Shown here: positions 1 to 41,164 of the stretch, one piece after another
How the letters are laid out: each line of letters starts with the position of its first letter
How positions within the stretch are numbered: position 1 is the stretch's first letter
Source: a virus
IMG/VR virus record: IMGVR_UViG_3300047289_000053
Location: 1-64,000 of that record
Direction: 5' to 3' (one strand)
Length of the DNA: 64,000 nt
The notes under the pieces: generated by a model
Database searches by the model: none
What the model was told of the DNA's origin: nothing
Seen by the model: only the letters and a program-made list of their open reading frames with translations
Made by a program: the position numbers and the translations under genes

Positions 1-169
1 GGTGGTGCAACCTGTCGCACAACAACCACAGATTGTCATCAACAATGCACAGACTCAGCAAGCATCAAGCGGAGGCACTAAGACTGTCATTGTTAAGGAG
101 AAGGCTGCAAAAGAAAAACCTAAAGTTCCTACAGCTAAAGAAGAATTAGAAAAACCACCACAATGGTAA
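1..169 (+). CDS. C-terminal end of a Gln/Lys-rich protein (partial)
   Basis: Only the last 55 codons are inside the window, read from base 2 and ending with TAA at 167-169. The fragment is rich in Gln and Asn, then Lys, Glu and Pro, ends in PPQW, and shows no fold I recognise; it resembles a flexible tail. Its stop overlaps the start of the CsgG-like gene by seven bases, so the two are probably translated together. Function unknown. Confidence 0.6.
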   Translation, partial: VVQPVAQQPQIVINNAQTQQASSGGTKTVIVKEKAAKEKPKVPTAKEELEKPPQW

Positions 170-870
170 GATGGAGTATTTGCTTATTGCTATTGTCGTT
201 GTCATCTTATGGGCAGATTGCCACGACCAAAACGGAGGCGTATCAAGCTAGTTTTGAGAAGAAGATTAATATCGACTCATTGATGGACTATGATGGTCCT
301 AAGATTCCTATTCAGTTATTATCGATTGGCATCAATGAGGATATCTATGCATCTTACCCAGAACTAAAAGATAAGCGTGTTGGACTAGGTGTGACTAATA
401 TTGTAGTTGAGTTCTTGGAAGAGACTAACCGCTTCACATTTACTGAAGATAAAGCTGAGATTAAGAACCGTATGGTCAAACAGTTTCAGGCTAGTCAGGC
501 AGGCATATCAGAGAATAAACTAGATGGCAGAGGCAAGATTAAACTTGCTCAGTACTTTGTGTACATCGAGTGCTATGATTTTTCGGTTAGTGAAGACGAA
601 TCTATTAGTTTAAAAGATGGTGCCAAGCAAACAGTAGTAACAAGACTTGGCTTGCAAGTTAAGTTTGTGAATGCTGAGACGGGTGAGTATTTTACAGGCT
701 CAGGGTTGGGTGAGGCTAAGACAACACGTGAGGCTACACTAATGAATGACGGTAACTTTGCAGAAATTAAATTTAATCAATCCACTATAGGCACAACGAC
801 TAAGAAAGCGTTGGAGAATGCTGCTAGTAAAATTATTGTGCGGATGATTAAAAAGAAAATCTTTAAATGA
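163..870 (+). CDS. CsgG-like curli-secretion family protein
   Basis: A 235-residue secreted protein. Residues 1-17 form a hydrophobic signal peptide ending before Gln, common in Bacteroidota. The only early Cys (residue 7) lies inside the hydrophobic core and does not make a convincing lipobox, so lipidation as in E. coli CsgG is doubtful. The middle and end follow the CsgG order: a stretch ending VVEFLEETNRFTF, a strand region KLAQYFVYIECYDF, then LGLQVKFVNAETGEYF followed by a Thr/Ser-rich segment, which matches the CsgG transmembrane-hairpin region (NLRVVNVSTGE in E. coli), and a final helix. CsgG forms the outer-membrane pore that exports curli subunits. Here it sits directly before a secreted partner (four-base ATGA overlap) and upstream of the tail fibre. 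A role in secretion, host envelope change or lysis is inference. No curlin repeats were found in the window. Confidence 0.62.
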   Translation: MVRWSICLLLLSLSSYGQIATTKTEAYQASFEKKINIDSLMDYDGPKIPIQLLSIGINEDIYASYPELKDKRVGLGVTNIVVEFLEETNRFTFTEDKAEIKNRMVKQFQASQAGISENKLDGRGKIKLAQYFVYIECYDFSVSEDESISLKDGAKQTVVTRLGLQVKFVNAETGEYFTGSGLGEAKTTREATLMNDGNFAEIKFNQSTIGTTTKKALENAASKIIVRMIKKKIFK

Positions 871-2009
871 AATGGATAGTATTTATAGCCATACTTATCT
901 TACCCACGATTATGTACGCACAAACACTTACACAGGTGTTCGTGGATCCGTGCAGTGGCAAGGTAACAACTGTAGTAGTACCATTAGCGGGCGGCAAAAC
1001 TACCGTGGTTTACCGAGGGCAGTACAAAGTAGTGACGGCAAACGATATTACAAGTGGAGCTCTGCAGGCGTGGATAAATGAGTTAACGGTTAATTTTCCT
1101 TGCCCTCAAGCAACGATTGCGGTAACCCAAACAGTAGCAAGTGCAGTATCCCAAGCAGTAGCAGCAGCAACAACAGCGGCAACAGCTACAGCAACAAGTG
1201 CAGCTACATCAGCAGCAACATCTGCAGCCACAGCGGCAGCAGCACCTGCACCGGTAGCAGAAACAAAAACGTCAGAAACTAAAACAGAATCTAAAAATGA
1301 AGAGCAAAAGTCCGAAAGTGGGGGCAAAAGTAAGTCCGAAAAGAAAAGTGAGAGCAAAAGCAAGTCATCTTCGTCGAATCCAATTATTTATTCTTCGGAT
1401 TTTACGGTCGCTCCATCTAGTGAAGTAACATCTATTATTGCTAGTGTTGGTATGAGCCAAGCATCCTTGATGGGTAATTCATCGTGGGGCATTAACTCTA
1501 TGATATGGTCAACCTTTGACCAATTCGCACTAGGAGCTAGATATACTTTGATGAACTTTAATCAAGGTAAGCTAGAGTCCATCTCAAACTTTGGCGTTAC
1601 AGGCGTTTATTTAGGAGGAAATGTGTTAGGCTTTGTAACGGCTGCTTACATCGTCCCTATGGGCAAGTATGGCACCACAGGAGCCAACTATACTTTGTCG
1701 GTTGCAGGAGCAAACGATGAGGCTAATATATCCAACAATATATTATTATTCTACACTGTACCTATCAAGATAAATAAGTACGTATCAATTAGTCCTGATT
1801 TATACGTGTCAGGGTCATCCACAGGCTACCTAACAAAACAGAAAGTATTTGTGACTAGCAATGACATAGGCATTTTAACAGGTGCCTCATTTGACATTGC
1901 ACTAACCAAACGCTTTAAGTTTAACTTTGCATTAAAGACGGGACTCAACACCAATCCCGCTGTTCCTCAGTCCTATCTTGGGATGATAGGCACCAAAATA
2001 AACTTATAA
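867..2009 (+). CDS. Secreted protein with Ala-rich linker and probable outer-membrane beta domain
   Basis: 380 residues. Residues 1-18 are a signal peptide (MKWIVFIAILILPTIMYA, then Gln). A small N-terminal domain (about 20-85) with two Cys is followed by an Ala/Thr-rich low-complexity stretch (about 90-130), a Lys/Glu/Ser-rich stretch (about 130-170) and a C-terminal domain (about 175-380). That last domain alternates polar and hydrophobic residues with many Gly, Tyr and Ser, as outer-membrane beta barrels do, but it ends in Leu rather than the usual aromatic residue. It overlaps the CsgG-like gene by four bases, so the pair is likely co-translated and may act together at the outer membrane. 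I do not recognise the family. Confidence 0.6.
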   Translation: MKWIVFIAILILPTIMYAQTLTQVFVDPCSGKVTTVVVPLAGGKTTVVYRGQYKVVTANDITSGALQAWINELTVNFPCPQATIAVTQTVASAVSQAVAAATTAATATATSAATSAATSAATAAAAPAPVAETKTSETKTESKNEEQKSESGGKSKSEKKSESKSKSSSSNPIIYSSDFTVAPSSEVTSIIASVGMSQASLMGNSSWGINSMIWSTFDQFALGARYTLMNFNQGKLESISNFGVTGVYLGGNVLGFVTAAYIVPMGKYGTTGANYTLSVAGANDEANISNNILLFYTVPIKINKYVSISPDLYVSGSSTGYLTKQKVFVTSNDIGILTGASFDIALTKRFKFNFALKTGLNTNPAVPQSYLGMIGTKINL

Positions 2010-2054: not shown

Positions 2055-5000
2055 ATGGCAAGAATACAAACATACCCGAATGACGTATACGTAACGGGAG
2101 GTGATAAGTGGATCGGTTCAGACGCTAACAATGATTTTATAACCAAAAACTTTACAGCAGATGCTGTTGCTGATTATTTTAATCGTGTAGGTATTATCGA
2201 TACAGGTAGTTTTAACTGGACGTACAAAATGTACGCTTCAACTGGAACTCAACCTGCTAAGACGTTTGAATTAGTTGACCATCCATATGATACAGTAGAT
2301 GTTATTGGACTTGCAGGAACTATCAAGGTTTCTTTCTTAACACTTGCTAATACACAACCGGGTATTTTCATTGAGCAGGCTTGGTTAGATAAAATTATTC
2401 TTGTTAATCGACCAGGATTTCCTAGTGAATACGGACTATATAAAGTAACTGCTGTTGTTCATAGTGGCGATTATTATTTCTTAGATTTAGATTTTATTGG
2501 TGGTCATTCAGGAACCATTGAAGAAGATGAGCCAGTTACATTTGGGTTATTCTCAGGCGTAAGTGGCACATCAGGTACTACAGGAACGTCAGGCACTTCT
2601 GGTACAACAGGTACATCAGGAACTAGTGGCGTAAACGGTACTAGTGGCTCATCAGGAACTACAGGTACGTCAGGTTCTAGTGGCACGACAGGAACTTCAG
2701 GTTCTAGTGGCACAACAGGTACATCCGGAACTACAGGCACAGGTGGCACATCGGGTACTAGCGGAACAAACGGTTCAGATGGTACATCAGGTAATACTGG
2801 AACAAGTGGTACGTCAGGTATTGATGGCTTTGATGGCACATCAGGTACTTCAGGTACTGACGGAACAGGAGGGACAAGTGGTACTAATGGTTCTGCAGGA
2901 ACTTCAGGCGTATCAGGAAGTAGTGGTACAAGTGGAGTAGATGGAACATCAGGAGTAAGTGGCACTAGCGGTATTGACGGAACTAGTGGTAGTAATGGTA
3001 CATCAGGTGAGTCTGGTACATCAGGTATAAGTGGGACTAGCGGTGTTTCAGGATCTTCTGGCACATCAGGAGAAAGTGGAACTTCCGGTACTACAGGTAC
3101 ATCAGGAACAGGTGGTACTTCGGGGGTTGATGGTGTTAGTGGTGGTCGTGTTTACTACTTTAACAATAGTCAATCATCATCTGTTTCTCCATACAAAGTA
3201 TTGTCTACTGAACCTACATTAGGTGCATTACAGACTGTAACTGTCAATATGAATGGTAACCAACAAAATGTGTTGGTTCAACAATTTATAACAGAGCAAC
3301 TAGGATTTACTATTATTCCTTCTGGTGTACAAAGATTCCATCTTCATACACTAAAGCCTCAGAATAATGACAATATACAAGTTTATGTAACATTACAGCT
3401 TGCCGACTCAACAGGTACGCCTTATGGTACATTAGCTACTTCATCTGTAGTTCTTTTATCGTGGTTTGGAACAGGTGTTATTGCAGAGACTACAGTGGAC
3501 TTTGTGTTCCCACATACGACAATCGATGCAACAGACCGCATGATTGTTAAGATTTACTATAACAATAATGTAAGTACTTCAAAAACTGCAGAGTGGTACA
3601 CAGAGGATAGCGAGTATTCTTATGTTACTACGTCAATTGCCGCAGCATCAGGTACAAGTGGCGTAAATGGTACTTCAGGTACATCAGGGGTAAGTGGAAC
3701 TTCAGGAACCACAGGTACAAGTGGTGTAGACGGAACATCGGGGACTGCAGGAACCTCAGGAGCTGACGGAACAAGTGGAGTAAGCGGAACGTCGGGAGTT
3801 AGTGGCACGTCAGGGGTAGATGGCACAAGTGGGGTTAACGGTACAAGTGGCACGTCAGGAGTAAGCGGAACTAGCGGTAGCTCAGGAGTAAGCGGTACAA
3901 GTGGAGTAGATGGCACAAGTGGCACAGGAGGTACATCAGGGACTAGTGGGGTGAATGGTACGTCAGGTACAGGTGGTACAAGCGGTACAGCAGGAACAAG
4001 CGGTACAACACCAGACACATCTTTATATGTGCTAAAGTCTGGTAGCACAATGACAGGTGCATTAGTTATTAATCCTGCAAACACAGGCGTAATTGGACTT
4101 GATGTAGCATCTGATACAATTAGATTACGTGCAGATAGTACTAATCCTTTTGCTCGCCAATTAACTACTACTTTGGGTAGTGGTACATTGGTTAAAATTC
4201 AAGCAGCAGGATATGGTGCAACTTACGTTACTGACTTAGGATTCTATACATCATCTGTATCATCAGTTAATAGCACACCAAACATTTACTTAACAGGTGG
4301 CGATAATCGTGTAGGTATTAATACTATTACACCTGCTTATACTTTAGATGTAGTAGGAACTGCAGGAGTTTCAGGAGTGTTGACATTAGGTTCTACTATT
4401 TCAAATGGAACTTATAACTATACATTACCTAGTGCTTCAGGCACACTTGCTTTAACAAGTCAAATACCAAGTGTTACGGGATTTGTGCCTTATTCAGGGG
4501 CAACTTCTGCGGTAAACTTAGGTATATATGCTTTATTTACTTCAGGAACATATATAACAAAAGTAGGCACTCAATCAGGTGCTATACTTTTTGAGCACGC
4601 ATCGGGTGGAACATTAGCTCCTTCAGGATATTCTGCAATCGGAATTACAGGTACTGATGGAATAGTGATGGCATTTAATGGGAGTTCTAATACTATAACA
4701 TTTAAAAATAATTTATTATCAGCTGCACAAATCTATTCTTTACCTAATGCTAGTGGTACTATTGCCCTTACTTCTAATTTGAGCTCTTATGTACCTTATA
4801 CGGGTGCGACAGGTGCTGTAAATTTGGGTGCATATGATTTAACTGTCAATTCAATAAAAGTTGGTAGAGGAGCAGGAAGTATAGCAGATAATACTGTAGT
4901 AGGTAATATTGCTCTTAATGCCAATACAACAGGAAGTAGTAATACTGCAATTGGTTACGCAGCTAGTAATGCTAATACAACAGCGGGTAATAATACATCT

Positions 5001-7028
5001 GTTGGATATTTTGCCTTAGCGGGAACTACAACAGGGGGAAATAATACCGCAATAGGGTCGGGTGCCCTTATAAACAATTCAACGGGGACTTTTAATACAG
5101 GTATAGGTAAAGATGTTCTTTCATCTAATACAACAGGTCAAAATAATGTAGCGGTTGGTCCTCAAGCTCTTTATTCTAATTCAACTGCAAATAATAACTC
5201 TGCGTTTGGTTATCAGGCTTTATTTTATAATACAACAGGAGCAAATAATACTGCAATAGGTAAAGGAGCGGGAATAAACTTAACAACAGGAAGCAACAAT
5301 ACAATTATTGGTGGTTATGCAGGTGATGCAGCAATGGCTAGTAATGTTGTATTATCAGATGGTGCGGGAAATATTAGATTTCAATGGGATGGCACAAATA
5401 TTAAGTTAAATGGAAACACAGTAGGCTCTAATGCTTATACTTCAACGGCTTACCTACCTTTAAGCGGAGGCACACTTACGGGAGCTTTAAGCGGTACAAG
5501 TGCTACGTTTAGCGGAGATGTTACTGCTGGAGATGGTACTGGTTCTGTTAGTATGGTTATTAATAGAGGAGCAGCTGGAAATAGTAATGGTTTAAGATTT
5601 AGAACTGCTGGAACTAATAATTTTTATATTGGAAGTGGAGCAACTGGAGCAAATACAGATTTAGAGATTTATAATCATAATACTGCTACTACAAACTTAA
5701 GGTTTGCTTACTCCACAGGCGCAGCCACGTTTTCGAGTAGTGTTACGGCGAGTAAACTAATAGTAGACGGGGCTTCTAATGGTAATAATTCACAATTTGC
5801 TTTAACTAGAACAGATAGCTCTTGGGGTATTTTTAATGAAACTGATTTAAGATTTTATCAGTCTAATAGTAATACTTCTAGTCCGGCTAGTGTTAAAATG
5901 GTTATTACAACCTCTGGCAACGTAGGCATCGGAACGACGGCGCCAAGTGCTTTATTGCATATTGATAAAAGCACAAACTCAGGAGACTTTGGAGTTTACC
6001 CTTTATCAATAGTTAGAAACTCTTTAGCTACTCAAGGAGATGGCTCAACTTCATATAATTTTGCTGGTTCATTAATACAATCAGGTAATGGAGCTGTTCA
6101 ATTTTATCGTCAGACAAGCTATGCTGCAGGTGCTTGGGAGCCGCAGGGTATATTAAATGTTGCAAGTAATCATCCGATGACATTTAAGACTAACAATACC
6201 GAACGTATGCGGATCACTTCCTCTGGCAACGTAGGCATCGGAACGACGGCGCCGAGTGGTATATTTGAAATTAGTAAATCTAATACCGATTATTTAAGTA
6301 CATCTGCTGGTCACTTGATATTAAACAATCCTAGTTCGACTGGACAGACTTCTATCTATATGCAAACTAACGGAACTGTTAGAGGTAAATTTAGAGTAGA
6401 TTTTAATGGAGATTTAGCTTATGTAGCAAATGGCGGAGCTCATACATTCTGGACTGGTGGAGATTATTCTGTAGGCTCCGAACGTATGCGGATTACTAGC
6501 GGGGGCAGACTTTTAGTAGGACAAACATCTGCTTCAGCAGCTAGTGTAAGTGGAGCTTGTATATTTGGTGATACAATTATGACTGGCTCTTATGCTGGTA
6601 TTTTCTGGGAAAACAGAAGCGGAGGAGTAACGACAAATAGTAACTGGTACGGATGGTACACAACAAGTGGAACTATTTACTTGTTTAATGGTGCTTCAAA
6701 CATTGCTTCAATAAATACTTCAAGTGGAGCATATACAGCTTTATCTGATATAAATAAAAAGAAAGATTTCGAAGATTCTTCAATCGGTCTAAATGCTATT
6801 ATGGGATTAAAGCCCAAATTATTTAGAATGAAAGACCAAGATGAAAGCTCAAGCAAGCAATTAGGTTTTATAGCTCAAGAGGTTAAAGATTTTATTCCTC
6901 AGGCATATATAGAAACTAAGAGCGAAAAAGAAAACTTTATCGGATTAGACGATAGACCAATTATTGCAGCTTTAACTAAAGCAGTGCAAGAATTAAAAGC
7001 AGAATTAGACACATTAAAAAATAAATAA
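2055..7028 (+). CDS. Tail fibre with collagen-like repeats, YadA-like head and S74 chaperone
   Basis: 1657 residues. Residues 1-165 are a globular N-terminal region, probably the virion-binding part. Residues about 168-364 and 533-652 are Gly-X-Y repeats dominated by Gly-Thr-Ser, with Gly-Val-Ser, Gly-Val-Asp and Gly-Val-Asn variants. Between them lies a beta-rich domain. Residues about 945-1095 carry NTAIG-type repeats as in YadA/Hep_Hag adhesin heads. The region 1100-1560 holds beta modules with repeated SGNVGIGTTAPS blocks. Residues about 1561-1657 match the intramolecular chaperone (peptidase S74): SDINKKKD gives the Ser and the Lys five residues later that make up the self-cleavage dyad, followed by LGFIAQEV and a C-terminal coiled coil. 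Such chaperones trimerise fibres and are then cut off. The Thr/Ser-rich repeats make this the obvious candidate substrate of the glycosyltransferase encoded just downstream on the other strand. Confidence 0.9.
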   Translation: MARIQTYPNDVYVTGGDKWIGSDANNDFITKNFTADAVADYFNRVGIIDTGSFNWTYKMYASTGTQPAKTFELVDHPYDTVDVIGLAGTIKVSFLTLANTQPGIFIEQAWLDKIILVNRPGFPSEYGLYKVTAVVHSGDYYFLDLDFIGGHSGTIEEDEPVTFGLFSGVSGTSGTTGTSGTSGTTGTSGTSGVNGTSGSSGTTGTSGSSGTTGTSGSSGTTGTSGTTGTGGTSGTSGTNGSDGTSGNTGTSGTSGIDGFDGTSGTSGTDGTGGTSGTNGSAGTSGVSGSSGTSGVDGTSGVSGTSGIDGTSGSNGTSGESGTSGISGTSGVSGSSGTSGESGTSGTTGTSGTGGTSGVDGVSGGRVYYFNNSQSSSVSPYKVLSTEPTLGALQTVTVNMNGNQQNVLVQQFITEQLGFTIIPSGVQRFHLHTLKPQNNDNIQVYVTLQLADSTGTPYGTLATSSVVLLSWFGTGVIAETTVDFVFPHTTIDATDRMIVKIYYNNNVSTSKTAEWYTEDSEYSYVTTSIAAASGTSGVNGTSGTSGVSGTSGTTGTSGVDGTSGTAGTSGADGTSGVSGTSGVSGTSGVDGTSGVNGTSGTSGVSGTSGSSGVSGTSGVDGTSGTGGTSGTSGVNGTSGTGGTSGTAGTSGTTPDTSLYVLKSGSTMTGALVINPANTGVIGLDVASDTIRLRADSTNPFARQLTTTLGSGTLVKIQAAGYGATYVTDLGFYTSSVSSVNSTPNIYLTGGDNRVGINTITPAYTLDVVGTAGVSGVLTLGSTISNGTYNYTLPSASGTLALTSQIPSVTGFVPYSGATSAVNLGIYALFTSGTYITKVGTQSGAILFEHASGGTLAPSGYSAIGITGTDGIVMAFNGSSNTITFKNNLLSAAQIYSLPNASGTIALTSNLSSYVPYTGATGAVNLGAYDLTVNSIKVGRGAGSIADNTVVGNIALNANTTGSSNTAIGYAASNANTTAGNNTSVGYFALAGTTTGGNNTAIGSGALINNSTGTFNTGIGKDVLSSNTTGQNNVAVGPQALYSNSTANNNSAFGYQALFYNTTGANNTAIGKGAGINLTTGSNNTIIGGYAGDAAMASNVVLSDGAGNIRFQWDGTNIKLNGNTVGSNAYTSTAYLPLSGGTLTGALSGTSATFSGDVTAGDGTGSVSMVINRGAAGNSNGLRFRTAGTNNFYIGSGATGANTDLEIYNHNTATTNLRFAYSTGAATFSSSVTASKLIVDGASNGNNSQFALTRTDSSWGIFNETDLRFYQSNSNTSSPASVKMVITTSGNVGIGTTAPSALLHIDKSTNSGDFGVYPLSIVRNSLATQGDGSTSYNFAGSLIQSGNGAVQFYRQTSYAAGAWEPQGILNVASNHPMTFKTNNTERMRITSSGNVGIGTTAPSGIFEISKSNTDYLSTSAGHLILNNPSSTGQTSIYMQTNGTVRGKFRVDFNGDLAYVANGGAHTFWTGGDYSVGSERMRITSGGRLLVGQTSASAASVSGACIFGDTIMTGSYAGIFWENRSGGVTTNSNWYGWYTTSGTIYLFNGASNIASINTSSGAYTALSDINKKKDFEDSSIGLNAIMGLKPKLFRMKDQDESSSKQLGFIAQEVKDFIPQAYIETKSEKENFIGLDDRPIIAALTKAVQELKAELDTLKNK
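2556..3146 (+). repeat. First collagen-like Gly-Thr-Ser block of the fibre
   Basis: About 197 codons of Gly-X-Y triplets, mostly Gly-Thr-Ser alternating with Gly-Thr-Thr, Gly-Ser-Ser, Gly-Val-Ser and Gly-Val-Asp. Codon choice varies between units, so the DNA is less repetitive than the protein. The opposite strand is open and reads as Pro-Val-Pro repeats, a by-product of the repeat. Confidence 0.95.
3651..4010 (+). repeat. Second collagen-like Gly-Thr-Ser block of the fibre
   Basis: About 120 codons of the same triplet type as the first block, separated from it by a beta-rich domain of about 165 residues. The two blocks could recombine to change fibre length. Confidence 0.95.
5912..5944 (+). 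repeat. 33-base identical repeat in the fibre gene, copy 1
   Basis: These 33 bases recur exactly at 6221-6253. They encode SGNVGIGTTAP and use GC-richer codons (GGC, GTA, ATC, ACG, GCG) than the AT-rich sequence on both sides. Confidence 0.9.
6221..6253 (+). repeat. 33-base identical repeat in the fibre gene, copy 2
   Basis: Exact copy of 5912-5944. A shorter shared word, CCGAACGTATGCGGAT, lies just before this copy (about 6200) and again near 6478. Confidence 0.9.
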
Positions 7029-7411: not shown

Positions 7412-7681
7412 ATGAAACTAAACTTTAATTTTAATCTAGTCGATTTAGACGGTAAGGAAATTGACAATGCTAATGCAGGTAAGTTAATCGCTAACTCATT
7501 AGTACAACAATCTAAGGGTGATGCTCTTAAGTTTTGGGAATGGGCTTTGGCTCTTAACAAAGGCGAAGAGTTAGACCTTGACTCATCTGATCAAGAGACT
7601 TTAAAGAACTTCATCAAGGATAGCGAGAACTTTGCTATTATTGCTAAGGCTCAGTTATTGAAAGTTCTTAAGAAGGACTAG
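7412..7681 (+). CDS. Small hypothetical phage protein
   Basis: 89 residues from the ATG at 7412. An upstream in-frame start exists at 7361 but would add an implausible extension overlapping the previous gene. The protein begins with a short strand (MKLNFNFNLVDLDG), is otherwise helical and acidic, and ends with KVLKKD. No transmembrane segment. It is the last gene before a strong terminator, so it probably belongs to the fibre transcript. Function unknown. Confidence 0.75.
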   Translation: MKLNFNFNLVDLDGKEIDNANAGKLIANSLVQQSKGDALKFWEWALALNKGEELDLDSSDQETLKNFIKDSENFAIIAKAQLLKVLKKD

Positions 7682-7706
7682 TTTATTAATCACATCATCA
7701 GCAGTT

Positions 7707-7748
7707 ATACTCCTCTGGCATTCAAATTGTCGAGGAGTATTTTTGTTT
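7707..7748 (+). terminator. Rho-independent terminator after the fibre operon
   Basis: Perfect nine-base stem ATACTCCTC (7707-7715) with GAGGAGTAT (7732-7740), followed by TTTTGTTT. The T-run is only on the plus side, so it serves rightward transcription and separates it from the leftward cassette that ends at 7747. Confidence 0.88.
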
Positions 7749-8484
7749 ACAGCAATCCCATATCAATTGCTTCTTGCTTTGTTATAAAACCAAGTTCTGT
7801 TAAATACTTCTTTATATACTTTCTTTCTATACCAGTAATCGTTTCCGCTTGTCTTAAAGATTCGTATACATAAAACTCATTATTAATATATCTGTATAAC
7901 TCTATTCTTTTAGGACTAGTAATTCTTAATTTGTCTCTTTCTTTATCAGTAAGTTTTCTGTTTTTAGCTTTAGCAGATAATTTCAACTTATGCTCATTTG
8001 ATAATTTTTTGCCATACCAGTAATTCTTATCTCCTTTTAAACTTTTAGATATTTTTAATTTCACATCATCTGAAACTTTTTTACCTAATGCTTTTTGGGA
8101 TAATATATTTTTTGTTTCTTCTGAATGATGTTTACCATAAAAAGAATTCAATGGGCCAATTGAGCTTTCTGACATCTTCTGTTTTCTTTCTTGGGTATAT
8201 ATCAAGTTTTTTATATCCTCTCCCCCATCAGTTAGATTAACTAAGGTACCATTATTCAAATCTTTTCTTCCATATAACTTTATGAATTCCATTTCTTTTT
8301 CACACGCTTCTTCACGACTTAAATCATCAAATAATATATCTACTCTGTAATCAGATATATTAATAACATTATGCCAATAGTTGTTTCTATTCTTTTTACA
8401 ATATGCTCTCCTAGTATTATTTCCAATACCAATATAAAACACCTTGTTAGTATCTAATCTTATATGCCTATATACTATTGCCAT
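7747..8484 (-). CDS. GIY-YIG homing endonuclease with NUMOD3 repeats
   Basis: 245 residues. The N-terminus is a GIY-YIG nuclease core in the divergent form VYRHI...VFYIGIG, with a conserved Arg region after it. The middle has three or four NUMOD3-type DNA-binding units (for example NSFYGKHHSEETK, NYWYGKKLSNEHK), and the end has a helix-turn-helix-like segment (SLRQAETITGIERKYI). This is the layout of free-standing homing endonucleases that nick DNA and spread themselves. Its start codon overlaps the glycosyltransferase stop by one base (TAATG), so it is translated with that gene. It probably moves, or moved, the cassette. Confidence 0.88.
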   Translation of the reverse strand: MAIVYRHIRLDTNKVFYIGIGNNTRRAYCKKNRNNYWHNVINISDYRVDILFDDLSREEACEKEMEFIKLYGRKDLNNGTLVNLTDGGEDIKNLIYTQERKQKMSESSIGPLNSFYGKHHSEETKNILSQKALGKKVSDDVKLKISKSLKGDKNYWYGKKLSNEHKLKLSAKAKNRKLTDKERDKLRITSPKRIELYRYINNEFYVYESLRQAETITGIERKYIKKYLTELGFITKQEAIDMGLL

Positions 8485-10541
8485 TATATTATCTTTTTTA
8501 TTTCTTCAATAACCATTTCAGCTGTTATTGTTTTTTGACATTCAAACATTCGATCAGAACCTTTATGTACGGGACACCAAGACCAGTCCCCCTTATCGAA
8601 TTTGAAGTTTTTATTGTTCCAGCATCCGGTACATACATTTTTATTGTATGGTCTAATACATTCAAATTCGTGACCTATCTCACTAAATCCAGCTATCATT
8701 ACAACCTTCTTTCCTAACCCCCAAGCGGTCCACGCAATTCCCGATCCCAAAGCAATAGTAAACTCACTGTGGTCGATTAACGCCATTGTGTCGTAGATAT
8801 TGTGATTAATAATCTGCTCACAGTTATCGAACGGATTCTCTTCAAGCGATACGTTAATTACTTTGTAGCCTTTGCTAACTAAGTAGTTAATCACTCCTTG
8901 CCACCCCTCCTTTGTCCAGAACTTACATCCTGATGTAGAGTTGGTAGCAATGGTCACATACTTACTCTCAGGTAATGCTTTCTTAGATGCATACATTAAT
9001 CTTGGGCTAATTTCTTTGAAGTCAAGGCCGAGAATATTGGTTGCTGCCTCTTGTAGCTTAATTGTATTTGGTAATACTGGTTCCTTGTTCGTATCGTAGA
9101 ACCAGCCAATGTTATACTGAGCATAGATATTAGGAACTACTGTGCCAGGTTCTACTAACTCTATCTCAGGAATGTCCAGTATTTTATTTAAAAAAGTGGA
9201 CATAATTACCTTGCATCTGTGTTTCTTTTGAAACTCTACAGCGTATGGTGCCCAAGCAATTGTGTCGCCTAATGACTTACTAGATAGAGCAATATACACA
9301 CGCTTGCCTTCTAGGTCAAGTACGTTATCGTGAATTAGTTTACCATCCATGTAGACTTTACTGTGCCACTTAGTATAGTATTGTCTGTTTAGTTTGACCC
9401 AGCTATTTGATCCGATAGTATTCTCGTAGACTAGTTTATCGCCATCAAAGTATTGTACCTTAAAGTCTGCTTTCAGTCCTGACTTAATTTCTAGGTATGG
9501 CTGGACAACAAAGTGTTGGATGATGGTTACATCTTGTTCTTGTTTGTCTAGTGTCATTACTTTGTTGTAGAAGTCAATTTGCTTCTGAGTGAATATCTCA
9601 GTCGTATTATCTATAGGTATTATATAATTAGAATATACTGACCTTAAATCAGAGTCAATAGGTTGAATATATTTATCAAACATTGACCCATACTGTGGTA
9701 AGTTTCTAGCTACAATAGGTAATCCATATCCTATTGCTTCCCGTAATACCAAAGGGTTGCATTCCCATGTAGAATTAAACATGAAAATATCTGCCAACAA
9801 CATGAATCGGTGTGCATCATTTCTCTCTCCCCACACTTTAACATTAGTTGGCAAATCTTTCATTAATGGCTCCCAGTAATGCTTGAAATTTATAGCTTGG
9901 TTTCCGATAAAATGAAAGTCCATTTCAGGATACTTTCTAGCTATCTCAATCCCTTCAGCTTGATTTTTACCAGGAGTCCAAAGACCTACACTAACTACAT
10001 TTTCTTTACGAAAATCAAACCCTTGTCTATGTATATCCATACAAGTATCAAGGTCATCTGTCTTGTCATCAATTGGAAACTCAATCACCTCTTTGTAAGA
10101 TGGCGATGAAGCGAATGTATCCAAGTGATATGGCGTGCAGAAATAGTACGCATCAGGATGAAATATCTTTTCTTTGTCGTGGTTAAACGACACGTCGTGA
10201 CACGTCTCCACAATTCGGTAACTTCGTTCTTCACGATATAACTCAGAAATCATATCACGATTAAACCTTTCGGCTGGCTCGTGAATGTGAACAATGTCGG
10301 GATTGAATTTTGCGATGATGTTGAATAACTCCATCTTGTCTTCGTGCAGAGTATGAAACGGGACTAGTTCCTTAATTTTATTTCTTTGCACGACATAGTC
10401 TAAGCTATGGCATTGATACTCTACTACCTCAATCTCAAATGTCTTATAAAGAGTTTGAACACTCTTTAAAACAAAACCGGGCATCCCCCCAGTCGAACAG
10501 TGAGCAAGTAGGAATAATATTTTTACTTTTTCTCCTTCCAT
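8484..10541 (-). CDS. Two-domain glycosyltransferase: GT4-like plus TibC/Aah-like O-heptosyltransferase
   Basis: 685 residues. Residues about 1-330 look like a GT-B family 4 enzyme: ILFLLAHCSTGGMPGFVLKS, DIVHIHEP (83-89), VVSVGLWTPGKNQ (182-194) and the sugar-nucleotide site NSTWECNPLVLREAIGYGLP (256-275). Residues about 340-400 form a strand-loop-strand region, and 410-685 a GT9-like domain typical of bacterial autotransporter heptosyltransferases: LGDTIAWAPY (424-433), then H-x-C-K-V, and the four-cysteine iron finger C637, C640, C656 and C668. Those enzymes O-glycosylate Ser in repeats of adhesins such as TibA and AIDA-I. The substrate here is inferred to be the Thr/Ser-rich fibre upstream. 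The start overlaps the HNH gene end by 19 bases and the stop touches the GIY-YIG gene, so the gene sits between two homing endonucleases. The sugar donor cannot be told from sequence. Confidence 0.85.
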   Translation of the reverse strand: MEGEKVKILFLLAHCSTGGMPGFVLKSVQTLYKTFEIEVVEYQCHSLDYVVQRNKIKELVPFHTLHEDKMELFNIIAKFNPDIVHIHEPAERFNRDMISELYREERSYRIVETCHDVSFNHDKEKIFHPDAYYFCTPYHLDTFASSPSYKEVIEFPIDDKTDDLDTCMDIHRQGFDFRKENVVSVGLWTPGKNQAEGIEIARKYPEMDFHFIGNQAINFKHYWEPLMKDLPTNVKVWGERNDAHRFMLLADIFMFNSTWECNPLVLREAIGYGLPIVARNLPQYGSMFDKYIQPIDSDLRSVYSNYIIPIDNTTEIFTQKQIDFYNKVMTLDKQEQDVTIIQHFVVQPYLEIKSGLKADFKVQYFDGDKLVYENTIGSNSWVKLNRQYYTKWHSKVYMDGKLIHDNVLDLEGKRVYIALSSKSLGDTIAWAPYAVEFQKKHRCKVIMSTFLNKILDIPEIELVEPGTVVPNIYAQYNIGWFYDTNKEPVLPNTIKLQEAATNILGLDFKEISPRLMYASKKALPESKYVTIATNSTSGCKFWTKEGWQGVINYLVSKGYKVINVSLEENPFDNCEQIINHNIYDTMALIDHSEFTIALGSGIAWTAWGLGKKVVMIAGFSEIGHEFECIRPYNKNVCTGCWNNKNFKFDKGDWSWCPVHKGSDRMFECQKTITAEMVIEEIKKII

Positions 10542-11005
10542 ACGAATCCACCAGCGTGGTTGTAAATATTTTTAATATTAAAATGAATACTCTTTCTGTC
10601 TACTTTGGTCGCTTTATAAGCATCTAATACAGACCTATGTTCGGCAATAAATTCACCTTCCTTAGTATATTGTATAACAGGTGTTTTTCTGCAATTTATA
10701 AGGCCCGTTCTATGTGCATGATATTTATTTTCGCTATCTGTAACCCACTCTAGGTTTTCAATATTATTGTTTAAAGGATTGCCATCTATATGATTTATCT
10801 GCGGCTTATTATAAGTATTAGGAATAAATGCTTGAGCGATTAATCTATGAACAAGTTGGTGTTTCTTCTTGTTGTCTTTCCACAATTCAACCATAAGCCT
10901 ACCTTGTTTGATAGTTTGTTTAATTTTGTGCTTTGTATTGATGTTTGTAACAATCCCTTGCAAGTCGATTGTATAATTTGGATACGCTTCTATTAATTTT
11001 TCCAT
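10523..11005 (-). CDS. HNH homing endonuclease with C-terminal NUMOD1
   Basis: 160 residues. The N-terminus (YPNYTIDLQGIVTNI) is NUMOD4-like. The HNH core follows (VHRLIAQAFIPN, then INHIDGNPLNNNIENLEWVT), with the metal-binding His-Asp-Asn set visible. The C-terminus (SVLDAYKATKVDRKSIHFNI) is a NUMOD1-type helix-turn-helix. First gene of the leftward cassette; its end overlaps the glycosyltransferase start by 19 bases. Confidence 0.9.
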   Translation of the reverse strand: MEKLIEAYPNYTIDLQGIVTNINTKHKIKQTIKQGRLMVELWKDNKKKHQLVHRLIAQAFIPNTYNKPQINHIDGNPLNNNIENLEWVTDSENKYHAHRTGLINCRKTPVIQYTKEGEFIAEHRSVLDAYKATKVDRKSIHFNIKNIYNHAGGFVWKEKK

Positions 11006-11562: not shown

Positions 11563-12117
11563 ATGAAGTCCCCATTTTACTTTATAGTGCAACCCCGTGA
11601 TGGCAAGAGATATGACAACACGAGGGGAGAGCTCATTATTTCTACATCGAAAGAAGACCACCTTGCCACTATGCGTGAGGCTGTTGTTATCTCTACGCCT
11701 ATTGGATACGAGGGTCCCGTTGAACCAGGTGATACGGTCATTGTGCATCACAATACTTTTAGGTTGTATTATGATATGCGTGGTAGAGAGAAGTCTGCTT
11801 GGAATTACTTCCGAGAGGACTTATACTTTATTGACGATCCATATGCATATAAGAAGCCTGGTGCTGATTGGATTGGTATTGGTCGCTACGTGTTCATCTC
11901 TCCTGTGGAGAATGACTACACAGGCATACTTACTGCAGACGCAGAGAAGCCTCTTGTAGGCACGATAAAGTATCCAAACGAAGAAGTACTAGCACTAGGA
12001 TTAAAAGAGGGCGACACGGTCACGTTTGAGCCTGAGAGCGAGTATCCATTCTATATTGACGGTCAGAAAGTATACCGTATGTATACTAAGAATCTAACAA
12101 TTAAATTAGATGAATAG
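11563..12117 (+). CDS. Protein with two GroES-like segments
   Basis: 184 residues. Two stretches resemble the GroES beta barrel. The first runs from about 35 to 90 (AVVISTPIGYEGPVEPGDTV, with HHNTFRLYYD and DLYFID). The second runs from about 130 to 184 (VGTIKYPNEEVLALGLKEGD, then FYIDGQKVYRMYTKNLTI). The pattern of a Gly-Asp turn followed by a strand and a C-terminal strand pair is the co-chaperonin pattern also used by T4 Gp31. No clear mobile loop was seen, so it may be a structural protein using the same fold. It lies before the terminase genes, whereas a normal groES lies at 59.7 kb. The GroES link is my reading and needs a profile search. Confidence 0.45.
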   Translation: MKSPFYFIVQPRDGKRYDNTRGELIISTSKEDHLATMREAVVISTPIGYEGPVEPGDTVIVHHNTFRLYYDMRGREKSAWNYFREDLYFIDDPYAYKKPGADWIGIGRYVFISPVENDYTGILTADAEKPLVGTIKYPNEEVLALGLKEGDTVTFEPESEYPFYIDGQKVYRMYTKNLTIKLDE

Positions 12118-37695: not shown

Positions 37696-39459
37696 TTAAC
37701 CATCACAAGATAAACAATCAGGATCCGTTGCACGTGTAGCAATATCAGCCCGCAAAACAGATTCTGTACGCATATAATACAATGTCTTAATACGTTGTCT
37801 CCAAGCCTCCATGTGTACCTGATTAATCCACTTAGGTGTAGCCTGAGATGGGAACGCTAGGTTTAATGAAACAGATTGGTCAATGTACTGCTGACGGATA
37901 CCTGCCTGCTTAATTAATTCTAATTGGTTTATCTCCTTAAATGTTTTGAATACATCCTTAACTGGGATATGGTCATCGCCTTCAGGATTCTCAGTCAACT
38001 TTCCGTTCACATAGAACCAGTTATCTAGTTCAGCAATGTCTTGGATTGATCCACCATCAGCAAGAATCTTATCCCATATCTCCTTGGTGTTAATACCAAT
38101 CTTCTTCAATACTTTCTCGAGCTCTTTGTTCTTGCGAATGAATGTACCCTTAGCTGATTGGTCTGTGAATACGTTAGCAGCCCAAGGCTCAACACCAGCA
38201 GATACGTTACCACTTAGCTTAGAGTTAGATACGGTTGGAGCTATTGCACGTAAGTGTGTGTTACGCATGCCTGTCTCAACACACCATAATGGCTCGCCAT
38301 ATTCTACAGCCATGTCACGTGATGCACGCTCAGACTCAATCTTAATTTGAGAGAATATCTTACGTGTCTCAAACTGAGCAAGCAATCCTTCGAACGGAAT
38401 ACCTTTCTGTTGTAAGTATGTATGCCATCCTAGAACACCTAGTCCAATAGCACGACCTTTCTCAGCAAATCGAACTACGTTCTCGAAGCCTTTCATATTC
38501 TTAGCTTTCTGAATGAACTCTTCAAGCACACCATCTAGAAACCATGTAGATACATAGATTAAGTCTGTGTCTTTCCACTCGTCATACTTAGCTAAGTTGA
38601 CTGATGATAGACAACACACAAAGCTATGGCTCTCATCTGTATGCAACACGATCTCCGAGCAGATGTTAGTCATGTAAACCTTCAAGCTATTCTTCTTGTA
38701 TGCCTCAGGGTTCTGCTTGTTCACGTTACCCTTGAACATAATGTACGGCTCACCTGTAGCCTTACGCTTCTGTAATAACTTGCCCCACTTGCGACGTGCA
38801 TCCGGGTCACCATCTTCTAGCTTACGCATAAACTTATCGCCCACCACAGCACACTGGTGTAGGTTTAAGCACTGGCGATTCACATCACCCTTAGGCTCAC
38901 GAATCTCCAACCAATCCTCAAAGTCTTTGTGCTCAATGTTTAAGTTACTAGATGCCGCACCACGACGTACATTGCCTTGTGATGTTGCAAGAATAGTAGA
39001 GTCAAAGATTTTAGTGAATGGGATAACACCATCAGATGTTCCGTTCTTAGATATCTTTGATCCTGCAGGACGGATACGGTTAAAGCCTACGCCTACTCCA
39101 CCTCCATGTTTAGCAAGTAGCATCATCTCTAAGTTCTTGGTACCAATGTCATATACTGAGTCAGCTATGTCAATACCATAACAAGAGATAGGTAAGCCAC
39201 GATCAGTGCCTGTGTTAGATAGCACAGGTGTAGCTAGGTTTAACCATCCATTCCAGATGTATTGAAAGAACTTGTCAGCCATCTCAGGCTTACCAAGTCT
39301 ATCAGCTACAGCACGAGACACACGTGCGTATGCATTAATTGGCTTCTCTCCTGCAAGCAGGTATCCACCTGAGATTGTCTTTACGTATTCGGGTGAGTTA
39401 CCCCAAGCTGGGAAGTCTACATCTAGTTCCCATCCTAGGTTCTCTGCGTGATTAATCAT
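37696..39459 (-). CDS. nrdA: Ribonucleotide reductase class I large subunit
   Basis: 587 residues. Makes deoxynucleotides from ribonucleoside diphosphates with NrdB. Visible are the first active-site Cys (SCYGID, C93), the radical site NICSEI (N265, C267, E269), CCLSSVNL, the C-terminal tyrosine pair in LYYMRT (radical path) and the C-terminal CLSCDG, the redox pair re-reduced by thioredoxin or glutaredoxin. The usual N-terminal ATP-cone of about 100-150 residues is missing, so overall activity control by dATP is probably lost, as in several phage enzymes. The start overlaps a small gene upstream, and nrdB is three genes upstream. Confidence 0.95.
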   Translation of the reverse strand: MINHAENLGWELDVDFPAWGNSPEYVKTISGGYLLAGEKPINAYARVSRAVADRLGKPEMADKFFQYIWNGWLNLATPVLSNTGTDRGLPISCYGIDIADSVYDIGTKNLEMMLLAKHGGGVGVGFNRIRPAGSKISKNGTSDGVIPFTKIFDSTILATSQGNVRRGAASSNLNIEHKDFEDWLEIREPKGDVNRQCLNLHQCAVVGDKFMRKLEDGDPDARRKWGKLLQKRKATGEPYIMFKGNVNKQNPEAYKKNSLKVYMTNICSEIVLHTDESHSFVCCLSSVNLAKYDEWKDTDLIYVSTWFLDGVLEEFIQKAKNMKGFENVVRFAEKGRAIGLGVLGWHTYLQQKGIPFEGLLAQFETRKIFSQIKIESERASRDMAVEYGEPLWCVETGMRNTHLRAIAPTVSNSKLSGNVSAGVEPWAANVFTDQSAKGTFIRKNKELEKVLKKIGINTKEIWDKILADGGSIQDIAELDNWFYVNGKLTENPEGDDHIPVKDVFKTFKEINQLELIKQAGIRQQYIDQSVSLNLAFPSQATPKWINQVHMEAWRQRIKTLYYMRTESVLRADIATRATDPDCLSCDG

Positions 39460-39589
39460 TTTCTAAAGATTTAATTAGTTCAAGTAAAAATTCTATCATT
39501 TGCACAGCACTCTCTGAGCTACTTGCATCTATCGAAGCGGTTGACTTATCGGGCAACACTATCTCCATTTTTATTGGGGAATTTGGCAT
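39452..39589 (-). CDS. Small acidic protein before nrdA
   Basis: 45 residues from the ATG at 39589 (another in-frame ATG at 39568). It reads MPNSPIKMEIVLPDKSTASI and ends with an acidic helix (MIEFLLELIKSLEND). Its stop overlaps the nrdA start by eight bases and its start overlaps the end of the upstream gene, which supports it as a real, coupled gene. Confidence 0.5.
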   Translation of the reverse strand: MPNSPIKMEIVLPDKSTASIDASSSESAVQMIEFLLELIKSLEND

Positions 39590-39845
39590 AGCTAAATGAT
39601 GTTAAAAAATTTGTTAGCGGCTCTATCTCATCAAAGTACATATACTCATCATCAAATATATAAGCCTTCCATGTACTAAGTTTTGCCTCATCGTCTGTAT
39701 TTGTTATTAATGATGTATGCCTAGATACTACATATAAGTAATAATAGAAATCTTCCGGGTATCCTGACTCATGTTTAGAGACAAAGATTTTCTCAAAACC
39801 TAAATCTATTAGGTCTTGTTCATGGATAGGATGGTGCTTTATCAT
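39546..39845 (-). CDS. Small hypothetical protein
   Basis: 99 residues, mixed alpha/beta and aromatic (YYYLYVVSRHTSL). It overlaps the MazG-like gene by four bases. Similar short proteins accompany nucleotide-metabolism genes in Bacteroidota phages. Function unknown. Confidence 0.7.
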   Translation of the reverse strand: MIKHHPIHEQDLIDLGFEKIFVSKHESGYPEDFYYYLYVVSRHTSLITNTDDEAKLSTWKAYIFDDEYMYFDEIEPLTNFLTSFSYAKFPNKNGDSVAR

Positions 39846-40150
39846 TCCTTTATGAAGACTCCGTTAGTTGTTTTTCCCTTGCGATGCTTAATCTCGTTCC
39901 ATGCGGAGTTCAATGCTTCTTGTGGTGTTAACCCACATTGCATTGTCAAGATGATAAGAGTAACGAACGTGTCACCTAAGCCGTCGATCAATTCATCAGG
40001 ATTGTTCTTGCTGATAGCGGAGGCCGCTTCACCCAATTCTTCAACAACCTTGACGAATTGAGACTTTACAAATGATGGGTCAATCAAACCTTTGTCGTTA
40101 GCCCAGTCATGTACGTTGATAATTAGTTGGTCAAAAGATAATTCTTCCAT
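39842..40150 (-). CDS. MazG-like nucleotide pyrophosphohydrolase
   Basis: 102 residues, all helical. Metal-binding helices are visible: KVVEELGEAASAI and DELIDGLGDTFVTLI, giving the ExxE...ExxD-type set of MazG/dUTPase-like NTP pyrophosphohydrolases. Such enzymes hydrolyse (d)NTPs or ppGpp, and phages often carry them next to ribonucleotide reductase, as here between nrdB and nrdA. Confidence 0.85.
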   Translation of the reverse strand: MEELSFDQLIINVHDWANDKGLIDPSFVKSQFVKVVEELGEAASAISKNNPDELIDGLGDTFVTLIILTMQCGLTPQEALNSAWNEIKHRKGKTTNGVFIKE

Positions 40151-40171
40151 TGTTATTATATTTAGTTTAAG

Positions 40172-41164
40172 TTAAAACATGTCACTCCAGTCCTCGCCTT
40201 CGTTGGCTTTACTGTATGCTGTTGGTCTAGTTGCAAAAAAATCTGAGTGCTCAACGCCTGCTGTCAATTGGTAGAACCAATCTAATTGCTCAGCGGCCGC
40301 AGGATCGTAAGCAAAGATAGGGTCATAGCCTAACTCTACTAACTTATCATTGATGCGTTTGTGCATAAAATGTTTAAGGTCGTAAGCCTTTAGGTTTTCT
40401 AAGTCACCTCTTTCAAATATCTTGTCGATAAAGTTCATCTCCATCTCTAAGGTTAACTTAGCCGCTTCAATGATGGCATCCTTTGCATCTGTTTTTAAGT
40501 CAGGGAATTCATCACACATGTGACGGAACAATTGACATCCCATCTTAGAATGTAACGCCTCATCCCTTACAGACCACTTCATCTGTTGGCCAACACCTTT
40601 TAGCTTGTTGTTCAATTGGAATGAGTAGAGCACAGCGAATGAGCTGTACAAGGCTACACCTTCAGTGAACGCTGAGAAGATTGCTAGTGATCTAGCCACA
40701 TCTCTACGGGCCGGTGCACTGGTGCACAGAATCTTATAATTGTAATGGTGAGGTACAGATGTTAATGCCTCAACACGACTAGCAATAGCAGGCTCATGCA
40801 TGAACCCTTCATAGTCATCAAGACCAAGGGTATCATTAAGATATGAGTAAGCCGTTGCGTGAACAGTCTCCTGAGCTCCGAACATCATAGCCATCTGAAT
40901 GATCTCATACTTAGGAAACCAATCAGTCACCATGCCTGTCCAATAGTCTGACACAGCACACTCCGTCTGAGCAAAGCCTAATAGGATATTGCCTACTACG
41001 TGCTTCTCATTCTCTGTTAGATTCTCATTCCAATCCTTTACATCAGATGACATAGGAATCTCTGTGTGCAACCAGAATGCTTGTGCTTGTTTCAGCCATC
41101 CCTCTGTGTAGTACTCTGGATACTCAAAAGGTTTGTATGCAATACGTTTTTCAAATAAGCTCAT
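40172..41164 (-). CDS. nrdB: Ribonucleotide reductase class I small subunit
   Basis: 330 residues. Di-iron ligands and the radical tyrosine are present: E68 region (TECAVSDYW), E99 and H102 with Y106 in GAQETVHATAYSY, E168 (FTEGVAL), E202 and H205 (RDEALHSK). The C-terminus EDWSDMF is the peptide that docks into NrdA. It supplies the tyrosyl radical for NrdA. It overlaps the end of the gene upstream by 14 bases. Confidence 0.95.
   Translation of the reverse strand: MSLFEKRIAYKPFEYPEYYTEGWLKQAQAFWLHTEIPMSSDVKDWNENLTENEKHVVGNILLGFAQTECAVSDYWTGMVTDWFPKYEIIQMAMMFGAQETVHATAYSYLNDTLGLDDYEGFMHEPAIASRVEALTSVPHHYNYKILCTSAPARRDVARSLAIFSAFTEGVALYSSFAVLYSFQLNNKLKGVGQQMKWSVRDEALHSKMGCQLFRHMCDEFPDLKTDAKDAIIEAAKLTLEMEMNFIDKIFERGDLENLKAYDLKHFMHKRINDKLVELGYDPIFAYDPAAAEQLDWFYQLTAGVEHSDFFATRPTAYSKANEGEDWSDMF

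What the first reader, a model, noticed from the sequence alone, without database searches (positions are those of the whole stretch)
8484..10541. Phage GT4 plus TibC/Aah-like glycosyltransferase next to a Gly-Thr-Ser fibre
Seen: residues 410-685 carry LGDTIAWAPY and four cysteines (637, 640, 656, 668) arranged like the iron finger of autotransporter heptosyltransferases, preceded by a strand-loop-strand part and a GT4-like half. Known: that family O-glycosylates Ser in repetitive adhesins. Inference: the fibre at 2055-7028, with about 320 residues of Thr/Ser-rich triplets, is the substrate, giving a self-contained fibre O-glycosylation system. The two GT domains could act in sequence, one priming and one extending.
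Basis: partly seen in the sequence, partly recalled or inferred. Interest (0 to 1): 0.8.

Follow-up and report, generated by a model that had tools for sequence, protein, structure and literature searches.

The report
Phage enzyme likely sugar-coating collagen-like fibre
A virus of bacteria carries a two-part sugar-attaching enzyme, one part related to the E. coli adhesin-glycosylating enzyme TibC, and across many phages this enzyme goes with a proline-free, collagen-like tail fibre made of glycine, threonine and serine, so these phages probably decorate their own fibres with sugars.

Summary
Confirmed: 8484-10541 (-) encodes one 685-aa protein, a complete GT4 glycosyltransferase (residues 5-332) fused to a TibC/Aah-type domain (337-685; TIGR04414 242 bits, cut-off 200; model-to-TibC Z 37). 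Catalytic Asp, donor-binding Thr/Lys/Trp and all four iron-finger cysteines are kept; the thumb that builds TibC's dodecamer is deleted and the adenine-contacting Arg286 is an invariant Thr, so "heptosyl" is not safe. The fibre has 106 Gly-X-Y triplets (X mostly Thr, Y mostly Ser, no Pro). The link between the two is strong: 35 of 38 enzyme-bearing viral contigs hold such triplets; of 21 contigs of at least 60 kb chosen only for GTS repeats, 16 carry the enzyme, against 1/13 with proline-type collagen repeats and 0/10 random; in one terminase clade, 19 of 20 long relatives have neither, one has both. An isolated Microcystis phage pairs them too. TibC-type domains occur alone, beside, or fused to different GT4s. 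Best reading: the TibC-like module O-glycosylates Ser of the fibre and GT4 extends it. Shown: architecture and co-occurrence. Inferred: substrate, donor, order, function. A new variant of a known kind.

The parts
8484..10541 (-). gene for the 685-aa two-domain glycosyltransferase
   Evidence: open frame; Pfam, NCBIfam, PDB matches; 42 diverse viral homologues with the same two domains; GC 37.5%, same as the window 37.4%
9546..10529 (-). GT4 (GT-B fold) domain, residues 5-332, EX7E motif E260/E268
   Evidence: PF00534; invariant residues in A1; VIA Z 27 to Anabaena HepE 4xsu
8487..9533 (-). TibC/Aah-like domain, residues 337-685
   Evidence: TIGR04414 242.4 bits; 4rap E 9.5e-47; VIA Z 37, rmsd 2.0, 344 residues
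9321..9530 (-). beta-barrel (residues 338-407), equivalent to TibC's N-terminal barrel
   Evidence: strands of the model; aligned to TibC from residue 21
9264..9266 (-). catalytic Asp426 (TibC Asp110)
   Evidence: mapping; invariant in 43 sequences
8538..8633 (-). iron-finger region, Cys637/640/656/668
   Evidence: invariant in A1
2055..7028 (+). collagen-like fibre gene, 1657 aa, probable substrate, with C-terminal S74 intramolecular chaperone
   Evidence: PF01391 7.3e-37, PF13884 1.7e-9; PHROG tail fibre
2556..3149 (+). first Gly-X-Y block (residues 168-365, 66 triplets)
3651..4010 (+). second Gly-X-Y block (residues 533-652, 40 triplets)
7747..8484 (-). GIY-YIG-like homing endonuclease inserted at the 3' end of the enzyme gene (not part of the function)
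   Evidence: PHROG 314, NUMOD3, TIGR01453; GC 27.5%
7681..7746 (-). displaced native 3' end of the enzyme gene (KNTPRQFECQRSITADDVINKL...)
10523..11005 (-). HNH homing endonuclease overlapping the enzyme's start
   Evidence: PF13392, PHROG 59

Best explanation
The gene makes a phage-encoded protein O-glycosyltransferase that modifies the phage's own proline-free collagen-like fibre. The TibC-like module, using a conserved Asp base and an iron-finger-stabilised GT-B fold, transfers a sugar from a host nucleotide sugar onto Ser (perhaps Thr) of the Gly-Thr-Ser triplets in the cytoplasm before virion assembly; the fused GT4 domain then adds a further sugar. The modified triplets probably stabilise or shield the fibre, much as glycosylated Thr replaces hydroxyproline in a vent-worm collagen. 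Shown: domain identity, conserved active-site residues, and strong specific co-occurrence with Ser/Thr triplet fibres. Inferred: the acceptor, the donor, the order of the two steps, and the purpose.
For: TIGR04414 above cut-off; TibC fold Z 37; D110, T226, K230, W305 and four Cys kept and nearly all invariant in 43 viral sequences. GT4 fold Z 27 with invariant E260/E268. Forward link: 34 of 35 enzyme loci with at least 8 kb downstream have a Ser/Thr-rich Gly-X-Y fibre there (count); 35 of 38 enzyme contigs carry GTS triplets, control pattern 0. Reverse link: contigs chosen by GTSGTSGTS DNA alone carry TIGR04414 in 22/79, 16/21 of those at least 60 kb; random viral contigs 0/50; proline-type collagen contigs 1/35, 1/13 of those at least 60 kb (Fisher p 2e-4). 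Lineage control: 20 long terminase relatives, enzyme 1, GTS the same 1. Cellular Bacteroidota: 0/247 above cut-off. Isolated Microcystis phage Mel-JY01: enzyme (317 bits) about 1.7 kb from a GTS fibre frame. L204 and L225: enzyme directly followed by the fibre. Domain independence: TibC-type alone, split beside, or fused to different GT4s. TibC modifies Ser, e.g. in N-S-G-G (PMC4358343); here T-S-G recurs.
Against: No glycan has been observed. Adenine-contact Arg286 is Thr, thumb residues 261-270 are missing, and stereoselectivity residue Pro300 is Gly, so donor and oligomer may differ from TibC. Five of 21 large GTS contigs lack TIGR04414 and show no GT9-type match either. Three enzyme contigs (L019, L049, L050) show no GTS triplets, though all are fragments; the 636-kb phage LR756504 has none within 20 kb. 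Most records are incomplete and not phylogenetically independent.
Confidence: 0.74

Rival explanations
1. The enzyme modifies the host's surface glycans (LPS or capsule) during infection, for example to block superinfection, and its link with GTS fibres is indirect because both belong to phages of similar hosts.
For: GT4 and GT9 folds are typical of LPS and capsule synthesis; temperate phages use glycosyltransferases for serotype conversion (review statement in PMC12619734).
Against: The C-terminal match is to the protein-modifying TibC type, with its barrel and iron finger, not to LPS heptosyltransferases. The enzyme tracks GTS fibres within one terminase clade and in a cyanobacterial phage, and does not track proline-type collagen fibres.
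Confidence: 0.1
2. It glycosylates another virion or host protein; the GTS fibre is only a neighbour.
For: In mycobacteriophages the glycosylated proteins are capsid and tail-tube subunits (PMC12619734 and PMC11256854). The enzyme is convergent with the fibre gene here, not in one operon.
Against: The constant partner across different backbones and gene orders is the Ser/Thr-triplet protein; in L204 and L225 the two genes are adjacent on one strand.
Confidence: 0.1
3. It glycosylates phage DNA (modified bases) to evade restriction.
For: Phage glycosyltransferases often do this (review statement in PMC12619734).
Against: No base-hypermodification gene was recognised among the ORFs scanned; the domain is TibC-type, not a known DNA glucosyltransferase; DNA modification would not predict the GTS link.
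Confidence: 0.03
4. The gene is a passenger of the flanking homing endonucleases without a selected role.
For: Two homing endonucleases flank it and one has replaced its 3' end.
Against: Relatives keep the gene without these endonucleases; both active sites are invariant down to about 57% identity; its GC equals the genome's while the endonucleases are AT-rich; even the swapped 3' end restores the iron-finger cysteine.
Confidence: 0.03

Closest known systems
TibC / Aah (BAHT family, TIGR04414), E. coli autotransporter heptosyltransferases; PDB 4rap, 4rb4
   Same: Fold (Z 37), beta-barrel, catalytic Asp, Thr/Lys/Trp donor residues, four-Cys iron finger with identical spacing; substrate partner is a repetitive Ser/Thr-rich surface fibre.
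Mimivirus L230 (bifunctional lysyl hydroxylase and glucosyltransferase; PMC9614988)
   Same: A virus-encoded two-domain enzyme acting on the virus's own collagen-like proteins.
   Different: Hydroxylysine glucosylation in a virus of amoebae; unrelated enzyme domains; here Ser/Thr would be the acceptor and no hydroxylase is needed.
Mycobacteriophage virion glycosylation (Freeman et al. 2023, as reported in PMC12619734 and PMC11256854)
   Same: Phage-encoded glycosyltransferases decorate virion proteins.
   Different: Capsid and tail-tube subunits are modified; no link with collagen-like fibres or TibC-type enzymes was reported in what I read.
BclA of Bacillus spores (PMC8968730)
   Same: Glycosylated collagen-like surface filament in a prokaryotic setting.
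   Different: Cellular, proline-containing repeats; different enzymes (my knowledge).
A0A6J5SVC1 'Glycosyltransferase Aah/TibC [uncultured Caudovirales phage]' and A0A7S9XE01 [Virus NIOZ-UU157]
   Same: Phage proteins with the same kind of domain, so such proteins are already in databases under automatic names.
   Different: I found no paper that discusses them or links them with GTS fibres.

Membership tests
BAHT / TIGR04414 (TibC, Aah) | curated HMM cut-off of 200 bits | tested here: met
   242.4 bits
BAHT / TIGR04414 (TibC, Aah) | catalytic base Asp110 | tested here: met
   Asp426, invariant
BAHT / TIGR04414 (TibC, Aah) | donor residues Thr226, Lys230, Trp305 | tested here: met
   Thr536, Lys540, Trp604
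BAHT / TIGR04414 (TibC, Aah) | adenine-contacting Arg286 | tested here: not met
   Thr585, invariant in A1; other phage TibC-type domains keep Arg
BAHT / TIGR04414 (TibC, Aah) | four-Cys iron finger | tested here: met
   Cys637/640/656/668, same spacing; iron itself not testable
BAHT / TIGR04414 (TibC, Aah) | beta-hairpin thumb for dodecamer assembly | tested here: not met
   TibC residues 261-270, including Phe265 and Val266, have no counterpart
BAHT / TIGR04414 (TibC, Aah) | N-terminal beta-barrel | tested here: met
   strands 338-407 in the model, aligned with TibC
BAHT / TIGR04414 (TibC, Aah) | gene next to an autotransporter | tested here: not met
   neighbours are a collagen-like phage fibre and phage structural genes
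BAHT / TIGR04414 (TibC, Aah) | Ser O-heptosyl transfer from ADP-heptose | not testable with these tools
   needs an enzyme assay
GT4 glycosyltransferases | Pfam PF00534 above cut-off, GT-B fold, EX7E motif | tested here: met
   34.7 bits against 26.4; Z 27 to HepE; E260 and E268 invariant
Collagen-like phage fibre | uninterrupted Gly-X-Y triplets and tail-fibre similarity | tested here: met
   PF01391 7.3e-37, PHROG tail fibre, 106 triplets
Collagen-like phage fibre | triple-helical structure | not testable with these tools
   no Pro in the triplets; needs circular dichroism or cryo-EM

The most novel reading that the evidence does not exclude
A widespread phage-borne protein O-glycosylation system, with a TibC-type enzyme of changed donor specificity as its core, is dedicated to proline-free (Gly-Thr-Ser)n collagen-like fibres, in which the sugar replaces proline/hydroxyproline as the stabiliser of the triple helix. 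Variable GT4 partners would give each phage its own fibre glycan, hence its own surface identity.
Probability: 0.4. Interest if true: 0.78.

Novelty: new variant of a known kind. Interest (0 to 1): 0.62.

Why it matters
If true, aquatic phages carry their own glycosylation machinery for their fibres. This would explain how proline-free Gly-Thr-Ser fibres could be stable, would widen virion glycosylation from mycobacteriophages to phages of Bacteroidota-like and cyanobacterial hosts, and would give a marker (TIGR04414 plus GTS triplets) that predicts glycosylated fibres in metagenomes. An isolated phage, Mel-JY01, already carries the pair, so the claim can be tested directly on virions.

Tried and rejected
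Lineage artefact: rejected with the terminase-clade control. General link with any collagen-like fibre: rejected with proline-type repeats. Base rate of TIGR04414 in viral contigs: 0/50. Host origin within Bacteroidota: 0/247 genomes above cut-off; the weak hits look like LPS heptosyltransferases. A genome-contig scan with the alignment gave one partial GT4-side match in a Bacteroidetes MAG, and that MAG has no TIGR04414 match. In the GTS-selected set the distance between enzyme and repeats is only moderately shorter than random (8 of 17 within 10 kb, p 0.012; 10 of 17, p 0.004 if contigs are treated as circular), so tight adjacency is not general. Other glycosyltransferases in GTS contigs without TIGR04414: PF01075 found in 1 of 10, so their fibres, if modified, use something else. 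Literature on GTS repeats in phages and on collagen-like phage fibres with glycosyltransferases gave nothing that describes this pair. The second structure-prediction job was not used.

Full report
What is there. The window is the first 64,000 bases of a 68,083-base virus record. The minus strand at 8484-10541 encodes a 685-aa protein. NCBIfam TIGR04414, autotransporter strand-loop-strand O-heptosyltransferase, matches residues 363-684 at 242.4 bits (cut-off 200). The closest solved structure is TibC (4rap, E 9.5e-47). Pfam finds GT4 in the N-terminal part. An AlphaFold2 model built on 43 viral homologues (mean pLDDT 86.9, pTM 0.68) splits into a GT4 domain (residues 5-329, Z 27 to Anabaena HepE) and a TibC-like domain (337-685, Z 37, rmsd 2.0 over 344 residues).

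Active sites. Mapped on TibC (residues from PMC4358343), Asp110, Thr226, Lys230 and Trp305 are Asp426, Thr536, Lys540 and Trp604, and the iron ligands Cys339/342/358/370 are Cys637/640/656/668. Nearly all are invariant in the alignment, as are the GT4 EX7E glutamates E260 and E268. Two things differ. Arg286, which contacts adenine N1 in TibC, is an invariant Thr, and the beta-hairpin thumb (261-270) that joins TibC dimers into the dodecamer is missing. Other phage TibC-type domains (L203, L206-L208, L217, L219, L223, L224) keep the Arg. I therefore call it TibC-like and do not file it as an autotransporter heptosyltransferase.

The partner. The fibre at 2055-7028 has 106 Gly-X-Y triplets in two blocks; X is Thr in 69, Y is Ser in 69, and Pro is absent. 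It ends in a Peptidase_S74 chaperone domain.

The link, forwards. In 80 viral loci encoding the two-domain enzyme, 34 of the 35 with at least 8 kb downstream show a Ser/Thr-rich Gly-X-Y reading frame there, convergent with the enzyme (counted from the table). Over whole records, 35 of 38 contain a strict three-triplet DNA pattern, and the reversed pattern gives none.

The link, backwards. Contigs were chosen only by GTSGTSGTS DNA. TIGR04414 occurs in 22 of 79, and in 16 of the 21 that are at least 60 kb. Random viral contigs give 0 of 50, 0 of 10 at that size. Contigs with ordinary proline-type collagen repeats give 1 of 35, 1 of 13 at that size. Fisher p is 7e-5 against random and 2e-4 against proline collagen. 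These records are neither complete nor independent, so the p-values are indicative only.

Not a lineage effect. Among 20 long relatives found by the terminase, one has TIGR04414 and that same one has GTS triplets; 19 have neither. Enzyme-bearing members of the clade found do have the fibre. The pair also occurs where no related terminase is seen in the flanks, in the 735-kb phage LR756501 (fibre about 4.4 kb away), and in the isolated cyanophage Mel-JY01, whose 1226-aa protein scores 317 bits and lies near a 1016-aa GTS frame. Of 247 Bacteroidota genomes none passes the cut-off.

Modularity. TIGR04414 domains in GTS phages occur as roughly 400-aa proteins (L203, L225), beside a separate GT4 gene (L227, L228), or fused to different GT4 types (L204, L205, L209, L216). 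In L204 and L225 the fibre gene follows directly. The constant element is the TibC-like domain, so I infer that it carries out the step on the protein and that GT4 extends the glycan.

Mechanism and likelihood. TibC transfers heptose to Ser, for example in an N-S-G-G context (PMC4358343); the fibre offers many T-S-G sites. Proline-free triplets should form weak triple helices; in a vent-worm collagen glycosylated Thr takes the stabilising role (Mann et al. 1996, cited in PMC6953826). I give 0.74 to fibre glycosylation as the function and less, about 0.45, to the order TibC-like first, GT4 second. The donor is open.

Comparison. Working analogues are Mimivirus L230 (PMC9614988), mycobacteriophage virion glycosylation and BclA (PMC8968730). 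Databases already hold phage proteins named Aah/TibC; I found no paper on the pairing (that library lacks most subscription papers).

Side finding. A homing endonuclease (7747-8484) sits directly after the enzyme gene, and after it lies an orphan stretch that matches, almost base for base, the 3' end of the gene in relatives without the endonuclease (L005-L009). The enzyme's own last roughly 85 codons instead resemble those of L001, which carries a similar endonuclease (91, 99 and 97% identity in the last three 100-base blocks, against 58, 70 and 52% with L005). The endonuclease thus seems to have brought its own copy of the target's 3' end, iron-finger cysteines included, which keeps the enzyme whole and argues that this end matters.

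Noticed in passing
window 7681-8484 (-); L001, L002, L011: A homing endonuclease with its own copy of the target gene's 3' end has displaced the native end, which remains as an orphan tail; seen in four related phages. It resembles the 3'-end replacement known from fungal mitochondria (my knowledge).
   Followed up: partly
window 57912-59459 (+) and 11563-12117 (+): The phage encodes a GroEL-type chaperonin (PF00118) and a GroES-like co-chaperonin (PHROG 13932).
   Followed up: no
L455 1-2298 (Microcystis phage Mel-JY01, PP395634): Two annotated minus-strand genes lie antisense to a 1016-aa GTS/SSG fibre frame; probably wrong-strand gene calls caused by the repeats. The window shows the same kind of antisense frames at 2504-3064 and 3620-4084.
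   Followed up: partly
L203, L206-L208, L217, L219, L223, L224: Phage TibC-type domains fall into a group that keeps Arg286 and a group with Thr or another residue there, which suggests two donor specificities; record G036 has two copies.
   Followed up: partly
window 163-870 and 867-2009 (+): Two proteins with signal-peptide-like starts next to the fibre gene, without Pfam or PHROG matches, conserved in relatives; possibly secreted or outer-membrane proteins.
   Followed up: no
window 37696-41164 (-): Ribonucleotide reductase large and small subunits; the large-subunit match falls into three stretches, perhaps an interrupted gene.
   Followed up: no
G008, G013, G049, G053, G065: Large viral contigs with GTS repeats but no TIGR04414 or GT9-type gene: either unmodified fibres or another enzyme.
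   Followed up: partly
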